64,000 nucleotides of DNA, taken from the NCBI RefSeq assembly GCF_003201675.2, contig NZ_CP029287.2, positions 124,001-188,000 of the forward strand, read 5' to 3'. The position numbers were made by a program, and so were the translations under genes. The notes under the pieces were generated by a model, which was given only the letters and a program-made list of their open reading frames with translations, did no database searches and had not been told where the DNA came from. This document shows, one piece after another, positions 11,542 through 22,711 of the stretch (positions are counted from its first letter, which is position 1; every line of letters starts with the position of its first letter). Origin of the DNA: Metallosphaera hakonensis JCM 8857 = DSM 7519. GTDB lineage: Archaea > Thermoproteota > Thermoprotei_A > Sulfolobales > Sulfolobaceae.

Positions 11542-11901
11542 TTACGCTGCCTTTATATTCTGTTTTATTTTGTTAAGGGTATCTTGGGGAATGGACGTCA
11601 TACCGTGTGAGGTTTTAGCGTGAATGGCTAACTCCTCCAGTAGTTCCTGTTCAGATGACGAACCAACGATCTCAAATCCGCAATTCATCCCTACGCTAGC
11701 ACAAGAGAAGCTATACTTAGCACTCTTCTTTATGTTCTGCTTTATTTTGTTTAGTAGATCAGCAGGTATTGAAGTAACACCGTGACTAGCCTTTGCGTGA
11801 GTCTTCAACATCTCAAGTAGTTCTTCTTCACTTCCAGCATTATGCATTACGAATCCACAATCCATTCCCACATCTTCACATTTAAACGAATACTTTGCCA
11901 T
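11542..11901 (-). CDS. Tandem DUF1059 protein
   Basis: This 119-residue protein (from the ATG at 11901; an in-frame start six codons earlier is less likely) holds two copies of the DUF1059 domain, residues 1-59 and 60-119. Each copy has the pattern 'YSFxCxxVGMxCGF', 'EEELLExLxxHAKxSHGxTSIP' and 'LNKIKQNIK'. The cysteines (C-x5-C) and the HAK..H histidine pair recur in each copy and could bind a metal. The function of DUF1059 is unknown. The divergent neighbour at 11990 encodes a single-domain version, so the pair came from local duplication and fusion. Confidence 0.85.
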   Translation of the reverse strand: MAKYSFKCEDVGMDCGFVMHNAGSEEELLEMLKTHAKASHGVTSIPADLLNKIKQNIKKSAKYSFSCASVGMNCGFEIVGSSSEQELLEELAIHAKTSHGMTSIPQDTLNKIKQNIKAA

Positions 11902-11989
11902 TAGATATCTAAACAACAATGAACTATATAGGAAAACGTTTGAATTCGTCTAATCAACTATTATATACTTTTTAAACCGTATTGTTCAT
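11902..11989. promoter_or_regulatory. Divergent promoter between DUF1059 genes
   Basis: The 88 bases between two divergent DUF1059 genes must hold both promoters. On the plus strand, tatactttttaaacc (about 11962-11976) is a fitting TATA/BRE area for a leaderless start at 11990. On the minus strand, a TATA-like stretch (tatatag on the complementary side near 11925-11930) lies about 27 bases before 11901. Confidence 0.5.
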
Positions 11990-14719: not shown

Positions 14720-15382
14720 TTACCTGGAAGTAACCTCGGTTAGACTGGCCTTTACTATACCGAAACCCCTTGACTTGAATCTCCCCAATCTCACCAAACC
14801 GTTGTTTATCACCTTAATGGCCTCCCTAAGGAGTTTCTCGCATTCGTGGTCAGAGCAGAGAACTTCAAACTCCACCTTGGCATTAGAGGCCTCAACTTTC
14901 AATCCCTCATATTTCGGATGTCTCGACTCTAGGAAATTGTAACTGAACCTGAGGTTTCCAACCTCCCTTAAATTCTTGATCTCCACATTATCTCCCAGTA
15001 TTCTCATCTTCCCCCTTACCTTACCGTTACCAAAGACCCTACATACAATGCAGGGGGATGAGAACTTATCCCTATATTCTTTGAGGCTCTCCCTACACTG
15101 CTGTGAGGCAGGAGATAGATTTTCAAACATGTCTTGAATATCGCTACATGTCCTAACTAAATCCTCGTCTCCCCTGCATATCCGCGAGGTTACAAACTCA
15201 CAGGAGTTCTCACCCTGAGAGTACACCGCCGCCGTTCTCAGTAATCCCTTAATTGAGGAGATGGGGACGAACTTCTTCGTGGGATAAAGGCCGTAATTGA
15301 ATTCTACCTTTTTCTCGCAAGGGACTGATTGCCCTATAACGTATTGGGTTACGGGAGTTAGGGTTACCTTGAATTTCTTCAA
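14720..15382 (-). CDS. Cas7-like RAMP protein of a type III CRISPR effector module
   Basis: This 220-residue protein is a RAMP of the Cas7 (Csm3/Csm5/Cmr6-like) group. The RAMP signs are 'FVPISSIKGLLRTAAV' (the P-x-SS-x-KG-x-LR loop, about residues 39-54), a cysteine pair in 'CIVCRVFGNGKVRGK' and the C-terminal glycine-rich loop 'GLVRLGRFKSRGFGIVKA'. Such subunits line the crRNA in type III complexes. The loop in front of the SSIKG motif has no aspartate, so it probably does not cut target RNA. It is the last gene of the module and overlaps the protease gene upstream by 4 bases (ATGA), so the two are made together. Confidence 0.82.
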   Translation of the reverse strand: MKKFKVTLTPVTQYVIGQSVPCEKKVEFNYGLYPTKKFVPISSIKGLLRTAAVYSQGENSCEFVTSRICRGDEDLVRTCSDIQDMFENLSPASQQCRESLKEYRDKFSSPCIVCRVFGNGKVRGKMRILGDNVEIKNLREVGNLRFSYNFLESRHPKYEGLKVEASNAKVEFEVLCSDHECEKLLREAIKVINNGLVRLGRFKSRGFGIVKASLTEVTSR

Positions 15383-15696
15383 GGATCCTCTACCTTGTTT
15401 TCCTTATAGTTAACTGTGAGACCGATTCTCTGAAGTCCGTTCTCTCCAATGAGGTTTCGACTGAAGTTGGGATGGGTTAGACATGCCATCTTAATACTCT
15501 TGGACCCATACCTTATCTCCACCAACTTCAACCTAGTGGGAAAGTACTCCCCTGAGATGGACTTCACGTAGGGTCCCCGGATTTCTTCTCCCGCGATCTT
15601 GGAGAAGGTGTTGAAGTCCAACAAGCACTCACCATCAAAGCCCGTATCCAATTTGAAGGTCACCGCTAAGCCTCCGATCTCCAGATCCAAGTTCAT
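15379..15696 (-). CDS. Retropepsin-like (clan AA, DTGF-type) aspartic protease in the CRISPR module
   Basis: This 105-residue protein has the half-pepsin pattern: the catalytic loop 'FKLDTGFDGECLL' with Asp-Thr-Gly at residues 17-19, a flap region ('YVKSISGEYFPTRLKLVEI'), and the second hydrophobic-hydrophobic-Gly motif 'NLIGENGLQRIGLTVNY'. This is the arrangement of the clan AA 'DTGF' proteases (AF_0612 type). Active enzymes of this size work as homodimers, each giving one Asp. It has no signal or membrane segment, so it acts in the cytoplasm. It overlaps the Cas7-like gene on each side by 4 bases, which argues strongly that it belongs to the effector module. Its substrate is unknown; a module protein or a host or virus protein are possible. 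Confidence 0.8.
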   Translation of the reverse strand: MNLDLEIGGLAVTFKLDTGFDGECLLDFNTFSKIAGEEIRGPYVKSISGEYFPTRLKLVEIRYGSKSIKMACLTHPNFSRNLIGENGLQRIGLTVNYKENKVEDP

Positions 15697-16889
15697 AGGT
15701 TCACCACTCCCTCTGCCTTCACCTCATATTTAAGGTTCCTCGCCTTGAGATCCGAGATTATCCTATCCAGTTCTTCAGTGGTTTTCGCTTCATGAGTCTT
15801 TCCCTCCTGGTCCACCACTATGTACTTAACCTGGGAGTCCCCCTGCAAAAGCGACGAGAGCAATGACGACGGGAATATCTTCCCTAGGATTCCGTAATCC
15901 GCGACGGGGGCACCTGGTTCCCGCGGTAGGAGACTTAGGGACCTACCTTGGAGAAGTGAATATTCGGAGAACTTAACCTCTTCGTTGAAGTGAAGCTCAA
16001 ACGATCCGTAACCTGAGGTCCCCCTCCCTCCAATCCATATCTCCCCGAATCTGGCCTTTTCCTTCATATCGTTTAAGGCCTCTGTTATCTGTTCCAGTTT
16101 CGTGTCATCCAGAATCAAAATGAAACCCAGGAACTTTACCCCTGCGGGGATTATCTCCTCAGTGAAAAGCTTGCTTTTCTCGCTGGTGCCGGTGACCCTG
16201 TTTATGGCCACGTGGGTTTCCCTCTCAAGGAGGATCGGAAAAGGATCTACCGCAACCAGGTCGGTGAACTTGACGTAACCCCTTACTCCCGAAGTCCCCA
16301 GAAGGTTGCAGACCTTGCATATGTTCTCCCTCCTGGTTATCTTGTTCCACAGGGACTTCTCCCTCCTCTTCCTTTCATCTTCGATGAGGCTCATGTTAAC
16401 GCATTGATCAAGGTCAGAGGTAACGTAACAGGACTCAGACGCATTCCTCCCAGTGACCTCGAAGTAAAGGTCCAGGTATTTTACTAGTTTTTCTTCATTG
16501 TAATTCCCCTCTTCCTTAATCTCGCACTTCTCCGTGAGGAGACCGGCGTCGTGAAATAGGTTAATTTCCTTACATAGGTCCTTCATTAGGTCCTTCATTA
16601 GATCGTTATCGCGTGATGGTGCCGAACTCAACGCCTTCCTTATCTCCGCTTCGTTAACCAAGGGAGCGTTGGGAGCCATCCTCTTCCTCAAGAACCTCTC
16701 ATAGGTTGACCTTAGGACTCCCTTGAATGACGTTGCAGGAATGGCAGGGATGTAATACAGTTGGTTATTATCCACTTGAAGTGGGATCTTGTATGTCATG
16801 ATGTCAGCTGCCGAGTAATCAAAGTATACTCCCGTTGAACCTATCCTGGTAACAGACTTGGTTTCAACTACCACTGGTAGCACTTTCAT
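15693..16889 (-). CDS. Cas7-like RAMP (Csm3/Cmr4-type backbone subunit)
   Basis: This 398-residue protein carries the full Cas7 pattern: 'YYIPAIPATSFKGVLRSTYERFL' (residues about 46-68), 'CKVCNLLGTSGVRGYVKFTDL', 'ETHVAINRVTGTSEKSKLFTEEIIPAGVKFLGFILIL' and 'IWIGGRGTSGYGSFELHF'. These match the Csm3/Cmr4 backbone that binds the crRNA. Asp29, in the loop 'SAADIMTY' before the PATSFKG motif, sits where the target-RNA cleaving Asp of Csm3/Cmr4 is found. A long insertion with several Cys residues follows the first motif, and at about 398 residues it is larger than usual (about 220-300). It overlaps the small 114-residue gene before it by 26 bases and the protease gene after it by 4. Confidence 0.88.
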   Translation of the reverse strand: MKVLPVVVETKSVTRIGSTGVYFDYSAADIMTYKIPLQVDNNQLYYIPAIPATSFKGVLRSTYERFLRKRMAPNAPLVNEAEIRKALSSAPSRDNDLMKDLMKDLCKEINLFHDAGLLTEKCEIKEEGNYNEEKLVKYLDLYFEVTGRNASESCYVTSDLDQCVNMSLIEDERKRREKSLWNKITRRENICKVCNLLGTSGVRGYVKFTDLVAVDPFPILLERETHVAINRVTGTSEKSKLFTEEIIPAGVKFLGFILILDDTKLEQITEALNDMKEKARFGEIWIGGRGTSGYGSFELHFNEEVKFSEYSLLQGRSLSLLPREPGAPVADYGILGKIFPSSLLSSLLQGDSQVKYIVVDQEGKTHEAKTTEELDRIISDLKARNLKYEVKAEGVVNL

Positions 16890-17208
16890 TGCGGAGCTCC
16901 TCCTCCACCTGGAGTTGATTAGATCTGATAATCTCCATGATTTTACTCACCGCTCCTTCAATGTCATTTTTATCAAGATATTGTCTTAATTCCTGAAAGT
17001 TACTTTTATCAATATATTTAAGAGCACTAAGAGAAAGGATTACGTTATTCTTTTGATCGAAACTCATCACTGGCCCACCTAATCTCTGTAACAAAGCCAT
17101 CTGTTTCAGAACTAGGACTATCTCTTTTATTTTTTCGATGTCCTCCAGAACCTCCTCCGGTTTCACCCTATTCTTCTTTCTCTGACCTCTCACCCTAATC
17201 TCCTCCAA
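16864..17208 (-). CDS. Small helical protein, candidate Cas11-like subunit
   Basis: This 114-residue protein is predicted to be nearly all helical ('KPEEVLEDIEKIKEIVLVLKQMALLQRL', 'NFQELRQYLDKNDIEGAVSKIMEIIRSNQLQVEEEL') with a basic start (RGQRKKNR). The size and helix content fit the small subunits (Csm2/Cmr5, now Cas11) of type III complexes, and the gene overlaps the Cas7-like gene by 26 bases. This is an inference from position and composition; there is no diagnostic motif. The start codon is uncertain: TTG at 17208, or a GTG five codons later that has a GGAGGAG ribosome site in front of it. Confidence 0.6.
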   Translation of the reverse strand: MEEIRVRGQRKKNRVKPEEVLEDIEKIKEIVLVLKQMALLQRLGGPVMSFDQKNNVILSLSALKYIDKSNFQELRQYLDKNDIEGAVSKIMEIIRSNQLQVEEELRNESATSGS

Positions 17209-17536: not shown

Positions 17537-18001
17537 TCAGCGGATGTCGAAACGATTCTGGAGTTCTCGGTTTTCCGTTTCTTCTCTTTTCTTGCCCCCT
17601 GATTTTGTCCCACACTCTTTAAGGATTCCCCTCACTTCTTCATTATTGTAGAGGAACTTAGGGGTTACTACGGTATTTTTAATAAATTTGTTCATTAAGC
17701 GGTCTAAACATCCGAATACCTTCCGACATAGTTCCTTGTCCTCGAGCAGACAGATCAGTTCCAAGGATTCACCGTTGAGGTTCATGAGAATTCTGGACAT
17801 GAACGGATCTCTCTCCTTCCCAGACCCGAACACATACTGTATTAGCTCCCCTGTATCCCTTCCGCAGGTCTTCTTGACGTAGCACCTAAAGATAGTCTTA
17901 AGCAACCAAAGGGTCTCCACGTCCTTTACTTTAATGTTAAGGGTGTGCCTTCTATCTTGTAACTTCTCCAGGCTCATGTTTCGGTATTTATCTAAAGACA
18001 A
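17537..18001 (-). CDS. Unrecognised protein of the CRISPR-like module
   Basis: This 154-residue protein matches no family that I recognise. It is mostly helical, has five cysteines (among them CYVKKTC near 40-46 and C..L..DKELC near 83-92), and a charged, probably disordered tail (TKSGGKKREETENRE). Its start overlaps the end of the Cas5-like gene by 10 bases, so it belongs to the same operon. It could be a second small (Cas11-like) subunit or the signature accessory protein of this variant; a comparison with csx26 of subtype III-G is the first thing to try. Confidence 0.65.
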   Translation of the reverse strand: MSLDKYRNMSLEKLQDRRHTLNIKVKDVETLWLLKTIFRCYVKKTCGRDTGELIQYVFGSGKERDPFMSRILMNLNGESLELICLLEDKELCRKVFGCLDRLMNKFIKNTVVTPKFLYNNEEVRGILKECGTKSGGKKREETENRELQNRFDIR

Positions 18002-18804
18002 GGAGCGATCACCCCCGTTCCGGCTATTAGGTATAATTTCGTGTAGTGGTCCCGCTCGTCCTCAATGGTCAGAGTCTTGTTGATCCAATAGAAGCTCCCT
18101 GGGCTTCCCTTCCTGCACTCGAGGGATATTAAGTAGGCAAGTCGTTTTCCATCCCTCAGTTTGATAAATCTACCCGGTATTCCACCGCATGGATCTTGAG
18201 AATCTTGAGGTTCTGTGAAAGAGTAGGAGTAAACTGGTCTCTCCTGTCCCATGTAGTTGGAGTTCTGAAATCTCAGGATCTTGATGTTGACCCTCGTTGA
18301 GTTCGTCCCAGTTATGTGATTGATGTCTTTCTCGTCAGACAGAACTAGGTTATATAGGCACATTTTGGTTTCGCTCCCCAAAGTTAGACCCTCAGGTTCC
18401 CCTTCAAGCTCCACCACAGTGAAGTTGTTCCCTACGTAGTAGAGATATTTACTAAGAATTTCGAAAATCATTGACTTCTCCCCTACGACATATCCTTCAA
18501 ACCTTGAAAAGTTGAGACCCTTCTCCCTTATGATCTTACTGAAGAACGGTTCAGTCTTATTTAACACTCTGTGTATTGACGTTCTGGAGACGTAGTGTTT
18601 CTTCTGTGATGTTGAACTCCTCCCGTAGTTAATTAGTTTGAAATCAGAGAACATTATCATTTCCTTGGGATCAACCTTATCCTTATTCAACACCATTCCG
18701 TGCACCACTCCTCCAGCCAAGGTGGTGGACGGTATAATCTCCTTGCCGTAAAGACCGAACACCTTTAATCTAACCTTGTACACCGACGGAGAACTTAGGC
18801 TCAT
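17992..18804 (-). CDS. Cas5-like RAMP protein (Csm4/Cmr3/Csx10-type)
   Basis: This 270-residue protein starts like a RAMP (VYKVRLKVFGLYGK) and has the loop 'IPSTTLAGGVVHGMVL' at about 25-40, which corresponds to the P-S-x-x-x-G motif before the first helix of Cas5/Cas7 proteins. The C-terminus ends in a glycine-containing strand-loop-strand 'YLIAGTGVIAPCL'. Its place directly after cas10 (4-base overlap) is where Csm4/Cmr3/Csx10 genes usually lie; such proteins hold the 5' handle of the crRNA and contact Cas10. The assignment to Cas5 rests on position and these motifs. Confidence 0.65.
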   Translation of the reverse strand: MSLSSPSVYKVRLKVFGLYGKEIIPSTTLAGGVVHGMVLNKDKVDPKEMIMFSDFKLINYGRSSTSQKKHYVSRTSIHRVLNKTEPFFSKIIREKGLNFSRFEGYVVGEKSMIFEILSKYLYYVGNNFTVVELEGEPEGLTLGSETKMCLYNLVLSDEKDINHITGTNSTRVNIKILRFQNSNYMGQERPVYSYSFTEPQDSQDPCGGIPGRFIKLRDGKRLAYLISLECRKGSPGSFYWINKTLTIEDERDHYTKLYLIAGTGVIAPCL

Positions 18805-21494
18805 ACCAACAACCTCGCCACGTAAGCTCTCACTTTCTCCTCAGGGTTAAGCTCAATGGAGAACGGTTTACTCTGGTACTCTCTAACCAACCTGTAAATC
18901 CCTTCGTTCGTAAGTTTCTTGAAGTTCCTGAATTCGGGGTAGGCAACTTCCTCGCTAGACGTGACCACGAACTCAACTACTTCCTCTGAGTTACCTTTGT
19001 TCAGTCTGTCATCCAACGCCTCCTCAACTTGTTTTAGGGAAAAAGCGTTCAAGGGTTCGGTAGGAACATTGTTTCTGTTCATGATTAGGGGTATTATCTC
19101 AATCACGGTTGGCCCAGATTCGTTATTATCCTTTACGCGTTCCACTCTCTCATTTAGTATCTCAATAATTAACGAAATGCTTGTGTATGTCTTAGCCTTG
19201 ATGAGATAGATCTGAATACTAGGTAAGCTGGACGCTTTTACGTATTCTCCAGGTTTATCTAACCAATCCAACTTGAAGATCACTTCCTTGAGGAATCGGA
19301 CCACATCTTTCTTCCGAATCGCGGTCATCAACAAGGGTGAGAAAGTCGTTGGAGCGACAAGGATTAATTGATTGATTCCAACTATGTAAGTTAACGCTAG
19401 GACCTCCTCTCCTAGGATTGAGAAGCTCTGCATCAAGCTGAAGTATCTGTCGAGAGCCTTCGGAACCTCTATTTCTTTTCTTAACTTGCCCGCGTTAGGG
19501 TCATTGAATAACTTTTTACACCCTCTGAAAGAGTTCTGATCTTTTGGTTCCAGAGTTACACTCTTTACTATACTTTCTATCTTTTTCCTGATAAAATAGA
19601 AATTTTTTCCGCCAATTAAATCTTTCAAGTTACCCAAGATGAAATTAGTCGTCTTATTCAACTCTAGTCCATTTTCATACAATTCAACACTATCGAAAAA
19701 TCTCTCCCCTACGGATTCTGGATCCCTCTTCAATTCTTCCCGAAGCTTATCTATCCTTTTCAAGAATTCATTTAAAATATCTTGATTTTGCTGATCCTGT
19801 TTATTCTTGAGTTCGGTTTCTATTTTGGACTTAATGTCATTAGTGAGTTTTCCCACCAAACAGTTAGATAGTTCTAAACATCCAAGTAATTTGATGTAAT
19901 ACTTTCTGGGATTGACCATGAAGGCTTCCGAATCATTCCTTTTAAAGATATCTAGATCAGGCTTTATGATCACATATATAACGTCGTCTGATGAGTCCGC
20001 AAGGTCGTCCAGACTACGACCTCTCCTCTCATGAGGCTTGAACTGCAAAAGGTGCCCCCAACCTTGGCTTTGGTTCCCCCCACCCGTGTTTTCGTCACCA
20101 AACCTCACTCCCGAAGACCTCCCTAAGTAGTAAGAAGATAGTCTTACACCAAGGCAAATATTACATATTTTCTCATCCGAATCCAGTATACCTTTCTTCA
20201 TGAGATTCTCAAATATTTCGGGTTTCATGTTTACGGCTCCTCTGACCTTGCATATATCACAAGTTTCGTGGCCAACAGGGAAACCCCTTATGCGGACTTC
20301 AATTCGTTCGTCCTTGATCCTCTTGGGTTCCCCTTTCTCTCCAAGATTCAATAATTCATTAAGTCTCTTAGCGCTATCTTGAAGTTGTCTCGTGGTATCG
20401 GTCAGGTCTTGGCCAGGGCTTTGAGAGGACTGTTTATTACCAATTATATTCGTTTCGGCAATTATTTTATTCGTGATGTATATTTCATGAACGATTTCGG
20501 ATAGATGTTCACTGAAATTGGACCTCGATAAGGCCTCATTGGGAGCCTTCTCTATGACAGAGCTCGATAAAACTTCATTGAGAGTCTTCTCCACGGCCTC
20601 CTTGACGAACTCGGGTAGTTTAGTCACCCTGTCCTTATCTAGAAAGAGCACTATGGACCTATGGTCAGTATACCATATGAGGGGAGTGAAGAAGTCAATA
20701 AGGGGAGAGTCATATTTACTAAGACCGTCCTCTATGATAATTTTCTTGCAAATATTTCGGGATAAGTTTAGTATTATTTCGTTGAGATGATATAGGAATA
20801 TCCTGGTAATAGCGAAAATGCCTTCTAGATCCTTCAGTTTCCTGATCGAAGAGAGAAAGGGGTTTGAGATCTCAACTACGGTGACATACCTGAGGGATGC
20901 CAGAAAAGCTCCACGGTTATGGGAAAGAACCGAGATATCATTACCTGTTATCCAACTTCTCTGTGGGAAGAACTTAATGGAGTCCACTACAATCTTTAAA
21001 TCTTCTAAGTTCAGATCATCTCCCTGTACAATCTTCTTGAGGGTAGTTGCGAAGATATCACCGTACTTAGATGTCAGATAGGAACATTGATACTTCGACA
21101 AACCCTTAAACTCTTCCTCAGGTTGAACGGGTTTGAAGCGAATGTCCCCAACGGATTCCAGATAATATTGTAGAGACAATGAATAAGGATTTAATATGAC
21201 TGAAGGTAATCTTTCTAGCAGATCCATTACTTTCTCATTATTTCCTATGAACTCTTGGCTCTGTTCAGCCATGCTAGCTATCCGATCGTAATCTTCATAC
21301 TTGGATTTTAGATTAGAATAACCCTGTGAATTTTTAGATCTCCCTCCCTTTGGGAAAAGTCCCTTAAAGAGATCATGAAAGTAAGAAATCAAGGTTTGGT
21401 CTCCACTTGGCGGATATTTCTCTAGGATCTCATCATGTCCATGATTCTTCATCTCTTCACAGACCTGCCGGGATTCGGGGGATTGTGATGACAT
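18801..21494 (-). CDS. Cas10 large subunit with degenerate cyclase motif
   Basis: This 897-residue protein is a type III Cas10. The N-terminal region has an HD-like start ('LISYFHDLFKG', about 34-45), a 'DYDRIASMAEQSQEF' segment like the 'ADRxAA' of HD-Cas10, and 'WITGNDISVLSHNRGAFLASLRY', which matches the 'DISLyDH.k.TAA.A' motif. A zinc site follows in the middle ('CDICKVRGAV', 'EKICNICLGVRLSSYYLG'). The first Palm strand keeps an Asp (IIKPDLDIFKR), but the GGDD of the second Palm is VGIN in 'LTYIVGINQLILVAP'. It therefore should not make cyclic oligoadenylate. It is the first gene of the module, with an ATG about 25-30 bases after a TATA-like caataaag. It is likely the crRNA complex scaffold. 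Confidence 0.85.
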   Translation of the reverse strand: MSSQSPESRQVCEEMKNHGHDEILEKYPPSGDQTLISYFHDLFKGLFPKGGRSKNSQGYSNLKSKYEDYDRIASMAEQSQEFIGNNEKVMDLLERLPSVILNPYSLSLQYYLESVGDIRFKPVQPEEEFKGLSKYQCSYLTSKYGDIFATTLKKIVQGDDLNLEDLKIVVDSIKFFPQRSWITGNDISVLSHNRGAFLASLRYVTVVEISNPFLSSIRKLKDLEGIFAITRIFLYHLNEIILNLSRNICKKIIIEDGLSKYDSPLIDFFTPLIWYTDHRSIVLFLDKDRVTKLPEFVKEAVEKTLNEVLSSSVIEKAPNEALSRSNFSEHLSEIVHEIYITNKIIAETNIIGNKQSSQSPGQDLTDTTRQLQDSAKRLNELLNLGEKGEPKRIKDERIEVRIRGFPVGHETCDICKVRGAVNMKPEIFENLMKKGILDSDEKICNICLGVRLSSYYLGRSSGVRFGDENTGGGNQSQGWGHLLQFKPHERRGRSLDDLADSSDDVIYVIIKPDLDIFKRNDSEAFMVNPRKYYIKLLGCLELSNCLVGKLTNDIKSKIETELKNKQDQQNQDILNEFLKRIDKLREELKRDPESVGERFFDSVELYENGLELNKTTNFILGNLKDLIGGKNFYFIRKKIESIVKSVTLEPKDQNSFRGCKKLFNDPNAGKLRKEIEVPKALDRYFSLMQSFSILGEEVLALTYIVGINQLILVAPTTFSPLLMTAIRKKDVVRFLKEVIFKLDWLDKPGEYVKASSLPSIQIYLIKAKTYTSISLIIEILNERVERVKDNNESGPTVIEIIPLIMNRNNVPTEPLNAFSLKQVEEALDDRLNKGNSEEVVEFVVTSSEEVAYPEFRNFKKLTNEGIYRLVREYQSKPFSIELNPEEKVRAYVARLLV

Positions 21495-22381: not shown

Positions 22382-22711
22382 GTGGTGGGATATGGGCTCA
22401 ACGAAAGCTTAGGTTCCCTCCTTGAGAATGCGGTCTACCTTGAACTTAAAAGAAGATATGGCGGAGATTCCATATTTTACTATCGAGGTAAGAACGAAGT
22501 TGATTTCATAATCCGTCAAAATAACGAGATCAAAGAGGCATATCAAGTTACTTTCACCCTGAACGATGAAAGGGAGATTAAGGGACTTAAGGAGGTTTTG
22601 AGAAGGAAGAAGGTTCCTGCCTACGTTATAACTTTCGATGATGAGGAGAAGGAAATTTCAGGGATTAGGGTTCTGAAGGGTTGGAAGTGGATGTTGGGTT
22701 CTTTTCCTTAG
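22382..22711 (+). pseudogene. C-terminal fragment of an AAA/DUF4143 ATPase
   Basis: These 109 residues match the end of the archaeal AAA_14/DUF4143 ATPases: '[50 protein letters not shown]', the PD-(D/E)xK-like end domain with E-V-D-F and Q-V. The ATPase core and Walker motifs, present in the full-length relative at 39742-40989 (415 residues), are missing here. It is a remnant of a deleted gene; expression as a separate small protein is possible but unproven. Confidence 0.75.

What the first reader, a model, noticed from the sequence alone, without database searches (positions are those of the whole stretch)
18801..21494. Cas10 has lost its GGDD cyclase motif (VGIN) but keeps an HD-like segment
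At the second Palm strand the usual GGDD is 'YIVGINQLILVAP'. The first Palm Asp remains. The N-terminus keeps 'FHDLFKG' and a 'DRIAS' helix, so ssDNA cleavage might persist, although the usual paired His-Asp context is not complete. Loss of cOA signalling agrees with the absence of any CARF protein nearby.
Basis: partly seen in the sequence, partly recalled or inferred. Interest (0 to 1): 0.75.

Follow-up and report, generated by a model that had tools for sequence, protein, structure and literature searches.

The report
Cyclase-dead Cas10 of type III-G CRISPR
The gene encodes the large subunit of a known, untested archaeal CRISPR defence type (III-G) that has lost its alarm-signal enzyme but keeps the residues expected for cutting DNA and RNA; what remains puzzling is an intact-looking protease encoded inside the same operon.

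Summary
Observation confirmed. The ORF at 18801-21494 (minus strand, 897 aa) is a Cas10 without GGDD; the turn reads VGINQ. It is the signature protein of the published subtype III-G (PADLOC Cas10g 852.6 bits; NCBIfam Csx26 123.7 bits, cut-off 50), for which cyclase loss is already reported. GGDD is absent in 10 of 10 III-G Cas10s aligned. One correction: the HD site is not incomplete. H40, D41, D70 and H192 match the permuted quartet of Lactococcus lactis Csm1. No CARF among nine neighbours scanned, but the same genome carries two other type III loci with GGDD/GGDE Cas10s and CARF proteins.

Additions: (1) Cas7a keeps the Asp equivalent to the Csm3 RNase residue in 10 of 10 loci, against the published statement; (2) a clan AA aspartic protease with intact D[T/S]G occurs in 7 of 10 loci, exactly those whose Cas7a carries an extra ~50-aa C-terminal piece; (3) one locus lies in a contig labelled Marsarchaeota. 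The protease is known since 2015, role unknown. Overall a new member of a known kind, with one open question.

The parts
18801..21494 (-). cas10 of subtype III-G, 897 aa
   Evidence: PADLOC Cas10g 852.6 bits; AlphaFold model pLDDT 71.7, pTM 0.78, best PDB matches Cmr2/Csm1
19350..19388 (-). Palm hairpin YIVGINQLILVAP (residues 703-715) where GGDD is expected
19956..19958 (-). D513, remaining Asp of the first Palm strand
   Evidence: D in 6, E in 2, N in 2 of 10 III-G Cas10s
21360..21380 (-). FHDLFKG, HD motif H40-D41
21285..21287 (-). D70 of YDRIAS, third HD-site residue
20919..20921 (-). H192 of NDISVLSHNRGA, fourth (permuted) HD-site residue
   Evidence: invariant in 10 of 10; matches L. lactis Csm1 His206
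17992..18804 (-). cas5 of subtype III-G
   Evidence: PADLOC Cas5_IIIg 258.5 bits; 4-nt overlap with cas10
17537..18001 (-). csx26, signature gene of III-G
   Evidence: NCBIfam NF049948 123.7 bits, cut-off 50
16864..17208 (-). small ORF of 114 aa upstream of cas7a, predicted four-helix bundle; candidate small subunit
   Evidence: an ORF of 72-114 aa directly upstream of cas7a in 10 of 10 III-G loci; AlphaFold pLDDT 83.5; fold search inconclusive
15693..16889 (-). cas7a, 398 aa
   Evidence: PADLOC Cas7_IIIg 180.7 bits; Pfam RAMPs 82.3 bits
16803..16805 (-). D29 of Cas7a, aligned to the Csm3 RNase Asp
   Evidence: hhalign 99.5% to Csm3 set; present in 10 of 10
15696..15857 (-). C-terminal extension of Cas7a (about residues 345-398), found only in protease-bearing loci
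   Evidence: 7 of 7 protease-bearing loci, 0 of 3 protease-less loci
15379..15696 (-). clan AA (retropepsin-like) aspartic protease, DTG at residues 17-19
   Evidence: PADLOC PEPT_D 182.5 bits; TIGR03698 matches 7 of 7 members, this one at 53 bits, below the cut-off of 57.35
14720..15382 (-). cas7b, 220 aa, without the RNase Asp
   Evidence: PADLOC Cas7_IIIg 183.7 bits; gap at the Asp position

Best explanation
This is the large subunit of a type III-G CRISPR effector. Shown: its Palm domain has lost GGDD, and the rest of the III-G gene set surrounds it. Inferred: it cannot make cyclic oligoadenylates; it borrows crRNAs from the genome's other CRISPR loci; binding of a matching transcript by the Cas7 backbone releases Cas10's permuted HD site (H40, D41, D70, H192) to cut single-stranded DNA; and Cas7a, which keeps its catalytic Asp, slices the bound transcript. 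Also inferred, more weakly: the embedded aspartic protease acts on or with the Cas7a extension, either trimming Cas7a during assembly or docking there.
For: III-G gene set: Cas10g, Cas5_IIIg, Csx26, two Cas7_IIIg. No adaptation gene or array at the locus: Cas1 lies only at 397632 and 2511887 of the genome; the genome's own CRISPR repeat has 0 matches in the window with 3 mismatches allowed; no repeat array in window 10000-40000. GGDD absent in 10 of 10. HD quartet matches L. lactis Csm1. Cas7a Asp: D29 aligned to the Csm3 GGxD Asp, hhalign 99.5%, E 3.7e-23, and the distance from the preceding I/V is 13 residues in 10 of 10 III-G Cas7a; D33A in S. thermophilus Csm3 gives RNase-dead Csm (passages of PMC11040160; that D33 is this same Asp is recalled, not tested). 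Guides in trans: array with 50 repeat copies listed and Cas1 in L043, a Cas2-like ORF next to it (named from memory), and a Cas6 in L044.
Against: All function is inferred from sequence. The AlphaFold model is moderate, with block pLDDT 50-69 around the HD motif, and gave no coordinates for measuring the site. III-G Cas10s lack the His residues between HD and D that make the dinuclear site of other Cas10/Cas3 nucleases, so the DNase could be weak or gone. In two of the nine Sulfolobaceae copies (L018, L021) the HD region is frameshifted, so the HD is not strictly maintained. Published authors state that Cas7 Asps are not conserved in III-G; their alignment was not available to me.
Confidence: 0.68

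Rival explanations
1. The complex is a pure binder or scaffold: cyclase dead, HD degenerate, and it acts by RNA or DNA binding or through the protease only.
For: No His between HD and D in 8 of the 9 III-G Cas10 ORFs that contain the HD motif (one His in L039), whereas the dinuclear nucleases have two; frameshifts in the HD region of L018 and L021.
Against: H40 and D41 are in the Cas10 ORF of 9 of 10, D70 in 8 of 10, H192 in 10 of 10; Cas7a D29 in 10 of 10.
Confidence: 0.17
2. Target-gated protease: the crRNA-guided complex controls the aspartic protease, a functional analogue of the III-E Craspase built on an unrelated protease.
For: Intact D[T/S]G in 7 of 7; 4-nt overlaps with both cas7 genes in the window; presence or absence agrees with the Cas7a extension in 10 of 10 loci.
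Against: 3 of 10 loci have no protease; no substrate is known; the agreement with the extension rests on one or two evolutionary changes (trees); a maturation role is the published guess.
Confidence: 0.12
3. Residual or altered nucleotide synthesis: the Palm still makes some other product in part of the family.
For: 5 of 10 III-G Cas10s (L016, L017, L018, L021, L022) keep an Asp in the hairpin turn and the first-strand Asp.
Against: The Gly-Gly is lost in 10 of 10; the protein in question has no Asp in the turn; first-strand and turn residues vary freely.
Confidence: 0.03

Closest known systems
CRISPR-Cas subtype III-G (Makarova et al. 2025, PMC12669027)
   Same: Cas10g without cyclase motif, Csx26, Cas5, two Cas7, no adaptation genes or array at the locus, HD retained (passages read)
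   Different: Here Cas7a keeps the RNase Asp; this locus carries the aspartic protease and a small helical ORF, neither named in the III-G passages I read; one locus is in a contig labelled Marsarchaeota although the paper calls III-G Sulfolobales-specific
[quoted passage not shown] 2015, PMC4390879)
   Same: Putative aspartate protease inside the interference cassette; role given as unclear, possibly subunit maturation (passages read)
   Different: No statement there, in the passages read, on the cyclase motif or on the Cas7a extension
Type III-A Csm1 (L. lactis)
   Same: Permuted HD quartet His13, Asp14, Asp80, His206
   Different: Csm1 has GGDD; III-G has a shorter HD-to-Asp stretch
Type III-E Craspase (PMC9729208, abstract and outline read)
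   Same: A type III effector accompanied by a protease
   Different: Craspase uses one gRAMP protein and a caspase-like TPR-CHAT; here a multi-subunit complex with Cas10 and a retropepsin-like protease

Membership tests
CRISPR-Cas subtype III-G | Divergent Cas10 of the III-G family | tested here: met
   PADLOC Cas10g 852.6 bits, residues 15-896
CRISPR-Cas subtype III-G | Signature protein Csx26 | tested here: met
   NF049948 123.7 bits, cut-off 50
CRISPR-Cas subtype III-G | Inactivated polymerase/cyclase Palm | tested here: met
   no GGDD; VGIN/GINQ in its place
CRISPR-Cas subtype III-G | No adaptation module and no CRISPR array at the locus | tested here: met
   Cas1 only far away; repeat absent from the window; no array in 10000-40000
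CRISPR-Cas subtype III-G | HD domain with catalytic residues present | tested here: met
   H40, D41, D70, H192; activity not testable here
CRISPR-Cas subtype III-G (published description, not diagnostic) | Cas7 lacks conserved catalytic Asp | tested here: not met
   Cas7a D29 aligned to the Csm3 Asp, in 10 of 10 loci; Cas7b does lack it. As all 10 III-G loci show it, this questions the description, not the membership
Clan AA aspartic protease (TIGR03698) | Profile match above cut-off and D[T/S]G motif | tested here: inconclusive
   motif present; 53 bits against a cut-off of 57.35 for this member; family matched by 7 of 7 at E up to 0.1, best 1.3e-31
Cas11 small subunit (for the 114-aa ORF) | Fold or sequence match to Csm2/Cmr5 | tested here: inconclusive
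   four-helix model; only generic bundles listed; PADLOC calls the family C3a64/C3a223, unknown function
Type III-E Craspase | gRAMP/Cas7-11 with TPR-CHAT protease | tested here: not met
   separate Cas10, Cas5 and Cas7 genes; protease matches clan AA models, not caspase-like ones

The most novel reading that the evidence does not exclude
Protease-bearing III-G is an RNA-guided retropepsin. After losing the cOA alarm, the complex uses a half-site aspartic protease, docked on the C-terminal extension of repeated Cas7a subunits, whose pairing into an active dimer is switched by target RNA: a second, independently evolved 'Craspase'.
Probability: 0.1. Interest if true: 0.88.

Novelty: new member of a known kind. 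Interest (0 to 1): 0.4.

Why it matters
Cyclase loss itself is already published for III-G, and I found no report of an experimental test of III-G in my paper searches. The useful additions are testable: Cas7a should still cut RNA, the HD site is a complete permuted quartet, and the protease and a Cas7a extension come and go together. If the protease were controlled by target RNA, it would be a second type of CRISPR protease.

Tried and rejected
Profile search of the PDB sequences with the Cas10 alignment gave no Cas10 hit (the single row, apolipoprotein at E 0.45, is noise); so did the single sequence. Global hhalign of a five-sequence Csm1 set against III-G failed (probability 0.1), so the match of H192 to His206 rests on motif and position, not on a profile alignment; local hhalign with 18 canonical Cas10s aligned only the stretch from the first Palm to the zinc-binding region (91.8%). 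The AlphaFold model gave no coordinates, so the HD geometry was not measured. Fold search of the 114-aa ORF listed only generic bundles; Cas11 was not listed, which excludes nothing. PDB search with Csx26 and the protease gave nothing useful. A single-sequence scan of genome contigs and a scan of viral contigs found no relatives. My first idea that the HD site had lost its motif I His, or used H20 upstream, was dropped after H192 was found. In one search the spacing row for 6ae2 is miscounted by my script (read by eye it is 13); rows L076 and L078 have 15, L079 and L100 have 14. In one search I built the Csm3 profile from 10 of the 19 ORFs extracted, the longer or clearer ones. Two weak Cas10g rows of the phylum scan (G331, G332; E 6.7e-4 and 9.6e-5) were not followed and not counted as III-G. 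Fragments in G131, and a third degenerate copy in G152, were left out of all alignments. L038 has the contig length and layout of L022 and was not counted twice. For Csx26 only 9 of 10 loci were aligned, as the L018 copy is broken. One search gave the Marsarchaeota locus; its order was scanned with 1 of 10 genomes positive, so mis-binning of that contig is not excluded; its GC is 0.509 with 0.526 and 0.494 in the flanks.
Full report
Observation. The ORF 18801-21494 lies on the minus strand and encodes 897 aa. It is a Cas10: PADLOC Cas10g 852.6 bits and a second Cas10 model 389.1 bits; Foldseek's best 17 PDB matches for its AlphaFold model are all Cmr2, Csm1 or Csm/Cmr complexes, and the best VIA row is Cmr2 with Z 9.2, rmsd 6.1, 401 residues aligned. 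Residues 703-715 read YIVGINQLILVAP where canonical Cas10s read e.g. LYLGGDDVMILAP. Of 18 canonical Cas10s taken from related genomes, 16 have GGDD and 2 GGDE; of 10 III-G Cas10s none has GGDD.

What it is. The operon on the minus strand is cas10, cas5, csx26, then after a gap of 328 nt a 114-aa ORF, cas7a, an aspartic protease and cas7b. Csx26 passes the NCBIfam equivalog cut-off for type III-G. The paper that defines III-G states that its Palm is inactivated, that no adaptation module or array has been found at its loci, that the HD is apparently active and that Cas7 Asps are not conserved (passages read, PMC12669027). A 2020 survey counted 15 loci of this variant in Sulfolobales (PMC7694759, passages read).

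Relatives. In the window genome's family 9 of 31 genomes match Cas10g; one of these (G131) has fragments only. I used nine loci from that family, the window's own included, and one more from a genome-contig scan: L039, contig NEXG01000035.1, titled Candidatus Marsarchaeota G2 archaeon ECH_B_1. Of 398 genomes sampled from the phylum 8 match: 6 in the window's family and 2 weak rows not followed. In the order of the Marsarchaeota genome 1 of 10 matches. In trees of Cas7a and Cas10 the L039 protein lies outside the two Sulfolobaceae groups, with III-G as a whole separate from outgroups, but the three-way split is unresolved and L039 is a long branch in the Cas10 tree. That L022 has the length of JAPNVD010000011.1 (Sulfolobaceae archaeon) indicates that the window's family is Sulfolobaceae.

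Palm. The first-strand Asp (D513 here) is D in 6, E in 2 and N in 2 of 10. At the turn the column of N708 is D in 5, N in 1, K in 1, E in 1, P in 1 and a gap in 1. The same five (L016, L017, L018, L021, L022) keep both Asps but none keeps Gly-Gly. This looks like drift after loss of function; the window protein is among those with no Asp in the turn.

HD. In L. lactis Csm1 the permuted quartet is His13, Asp14, Asp80 and His206 (figure legend, PMC8964682); PDB sequence 6xn3 shows His206 in DISLYDHSRTT. III-G has NDISVLSHNRGA with H192 invariant in 10 of 10 (L016 escapes the pattern but is aligned). With H40-D41 and D70 the quartet is complete. H40-D41 is in the Cas10 ORF of 9 of 10, D70 in 8 of 10; L018 and L021 are frameshifted there. 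A review says that dinuclear HD sites are recognised by two further His between HD and D and lists Cas10 as dinuclear (passages, PMC8177086). The III-G stretch is short and has no His except one in L039, while 11 of 12 canonical Cas10s with a recognisable LHDxGK motif have at least two (the exception, L040, has one). So a DNase is likely but could be of one-metal type or weakened. A global profile alignment to Csm1 failed, so the H192 match rests on motif and position.

Cas7. Profile comparison aligns Cas7a with ten Csm3-like proteins at 99.5%, E 3.7e-23, placing D29 on the Asp of GGxD. D29 is present in all ten Cas7a genes; in L020 it lies upstream of the first listed start and was read from the DNA, and in L015 the start looks further upstream than listed. 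D33A in S. thermophilus Csm3 is RNase-dead (passages, PMC11040160); that this is the same Asp I take from general knowledge of Csm3. Cas7b lacks it. This contradicts the published sentence on Cas7 in III-G. I could not see the authors' alignment.

Protease and Cas7a extension. Seven of ten loci have a 104-109-aa protein with D[T/S]G intact in 7 of 7, encoded next to cas7a. TIGR03698 matches 7 of 7, the window's own at 53 bits, under the cut-off of 57.35. The three loci without it (L015, L016, L020; none within the 18 kb stretches) are also the three whose Cas7a stops at the core; all seven with it carry about 50 further residues. In those three csx26 lies between the two cas7 genes; in L039 both protease and csx26 lie there, which would fit loss of the protease from an ancestral arrangement. 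The association may reflect a single event. The protease was reported in 2015 with the suggestion of subunit maturation (PMC4390879, passages). My searches with 'aspartyl protease', 'aspartic protease', 'retropepsin' and Csx26 listed no paper on its function.

Small ORF. An ORF of 72-114 aa stands directly upstream of cas7a in 10 of 10 loci. PADLOC models of unknown function match it: C3a64 in 6 and C3a223 in 3 of 10 members at E up to 1. AlphaFold gives four helices at pLDDT 83.5. It is a candidate small subunit, a role the 2025 paper assigns tentatively to Csx26. Fold search was inconclusive.

The rest of the cell. The genome has a III-A-like locus with GGDD Csm1, a CARF5 protein, Cas1 and an array with 50 repeat copies listed and a second locus with a GGDE Cas10, a CARF5 protein and Cas6. 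cOA signalling is thus probably present in the cell, and guides in trans are available.

Verdict. A confirmed observation, a known subtype, and several small additions of which the Cas7a Asp and the protease-extension link are the most useful.

Noticed in passing
L039 6935-13179 (contig NEXG01000035.1): Complete III-G-like locus, with protease, in a contig labelled Marsarchaeota; III-G is described as Sulfolobales-specific.
   Followed up: partly
L020 and L021 (genome G152): One genome carries both III-G kinds, with and without protease, about 40 kb apart, plus a third degenerate Cas10 fragment (L014).
   Followed up: no
L018 10685-10909 and 8415-10724; L021 7968-10469; L023: Cas10g frameshifted in the HD region in two loci and reduced to fragments in a third genome, suggesting ongoing decay.
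   Followed up: partly
L044 8511-11252 and L054: Two other Cas10s have GGDE instead of GGDD.
   Followed up: no
L043 14885-17290: Repeated, insertion-sequence-like DNA lies directly upstream of the genome's III-A genes.
   Followed up: no
window 22382-22711: Short ORF matching the C-terminal part of a DUF4143 protein, probably a gene remnant beside the CRISPR operon.
   Followed up: no
window 11542-11919: 125-aa protein made of two similar halves (YSFxCxxVGMxCGF repeated).
   Followed up: no
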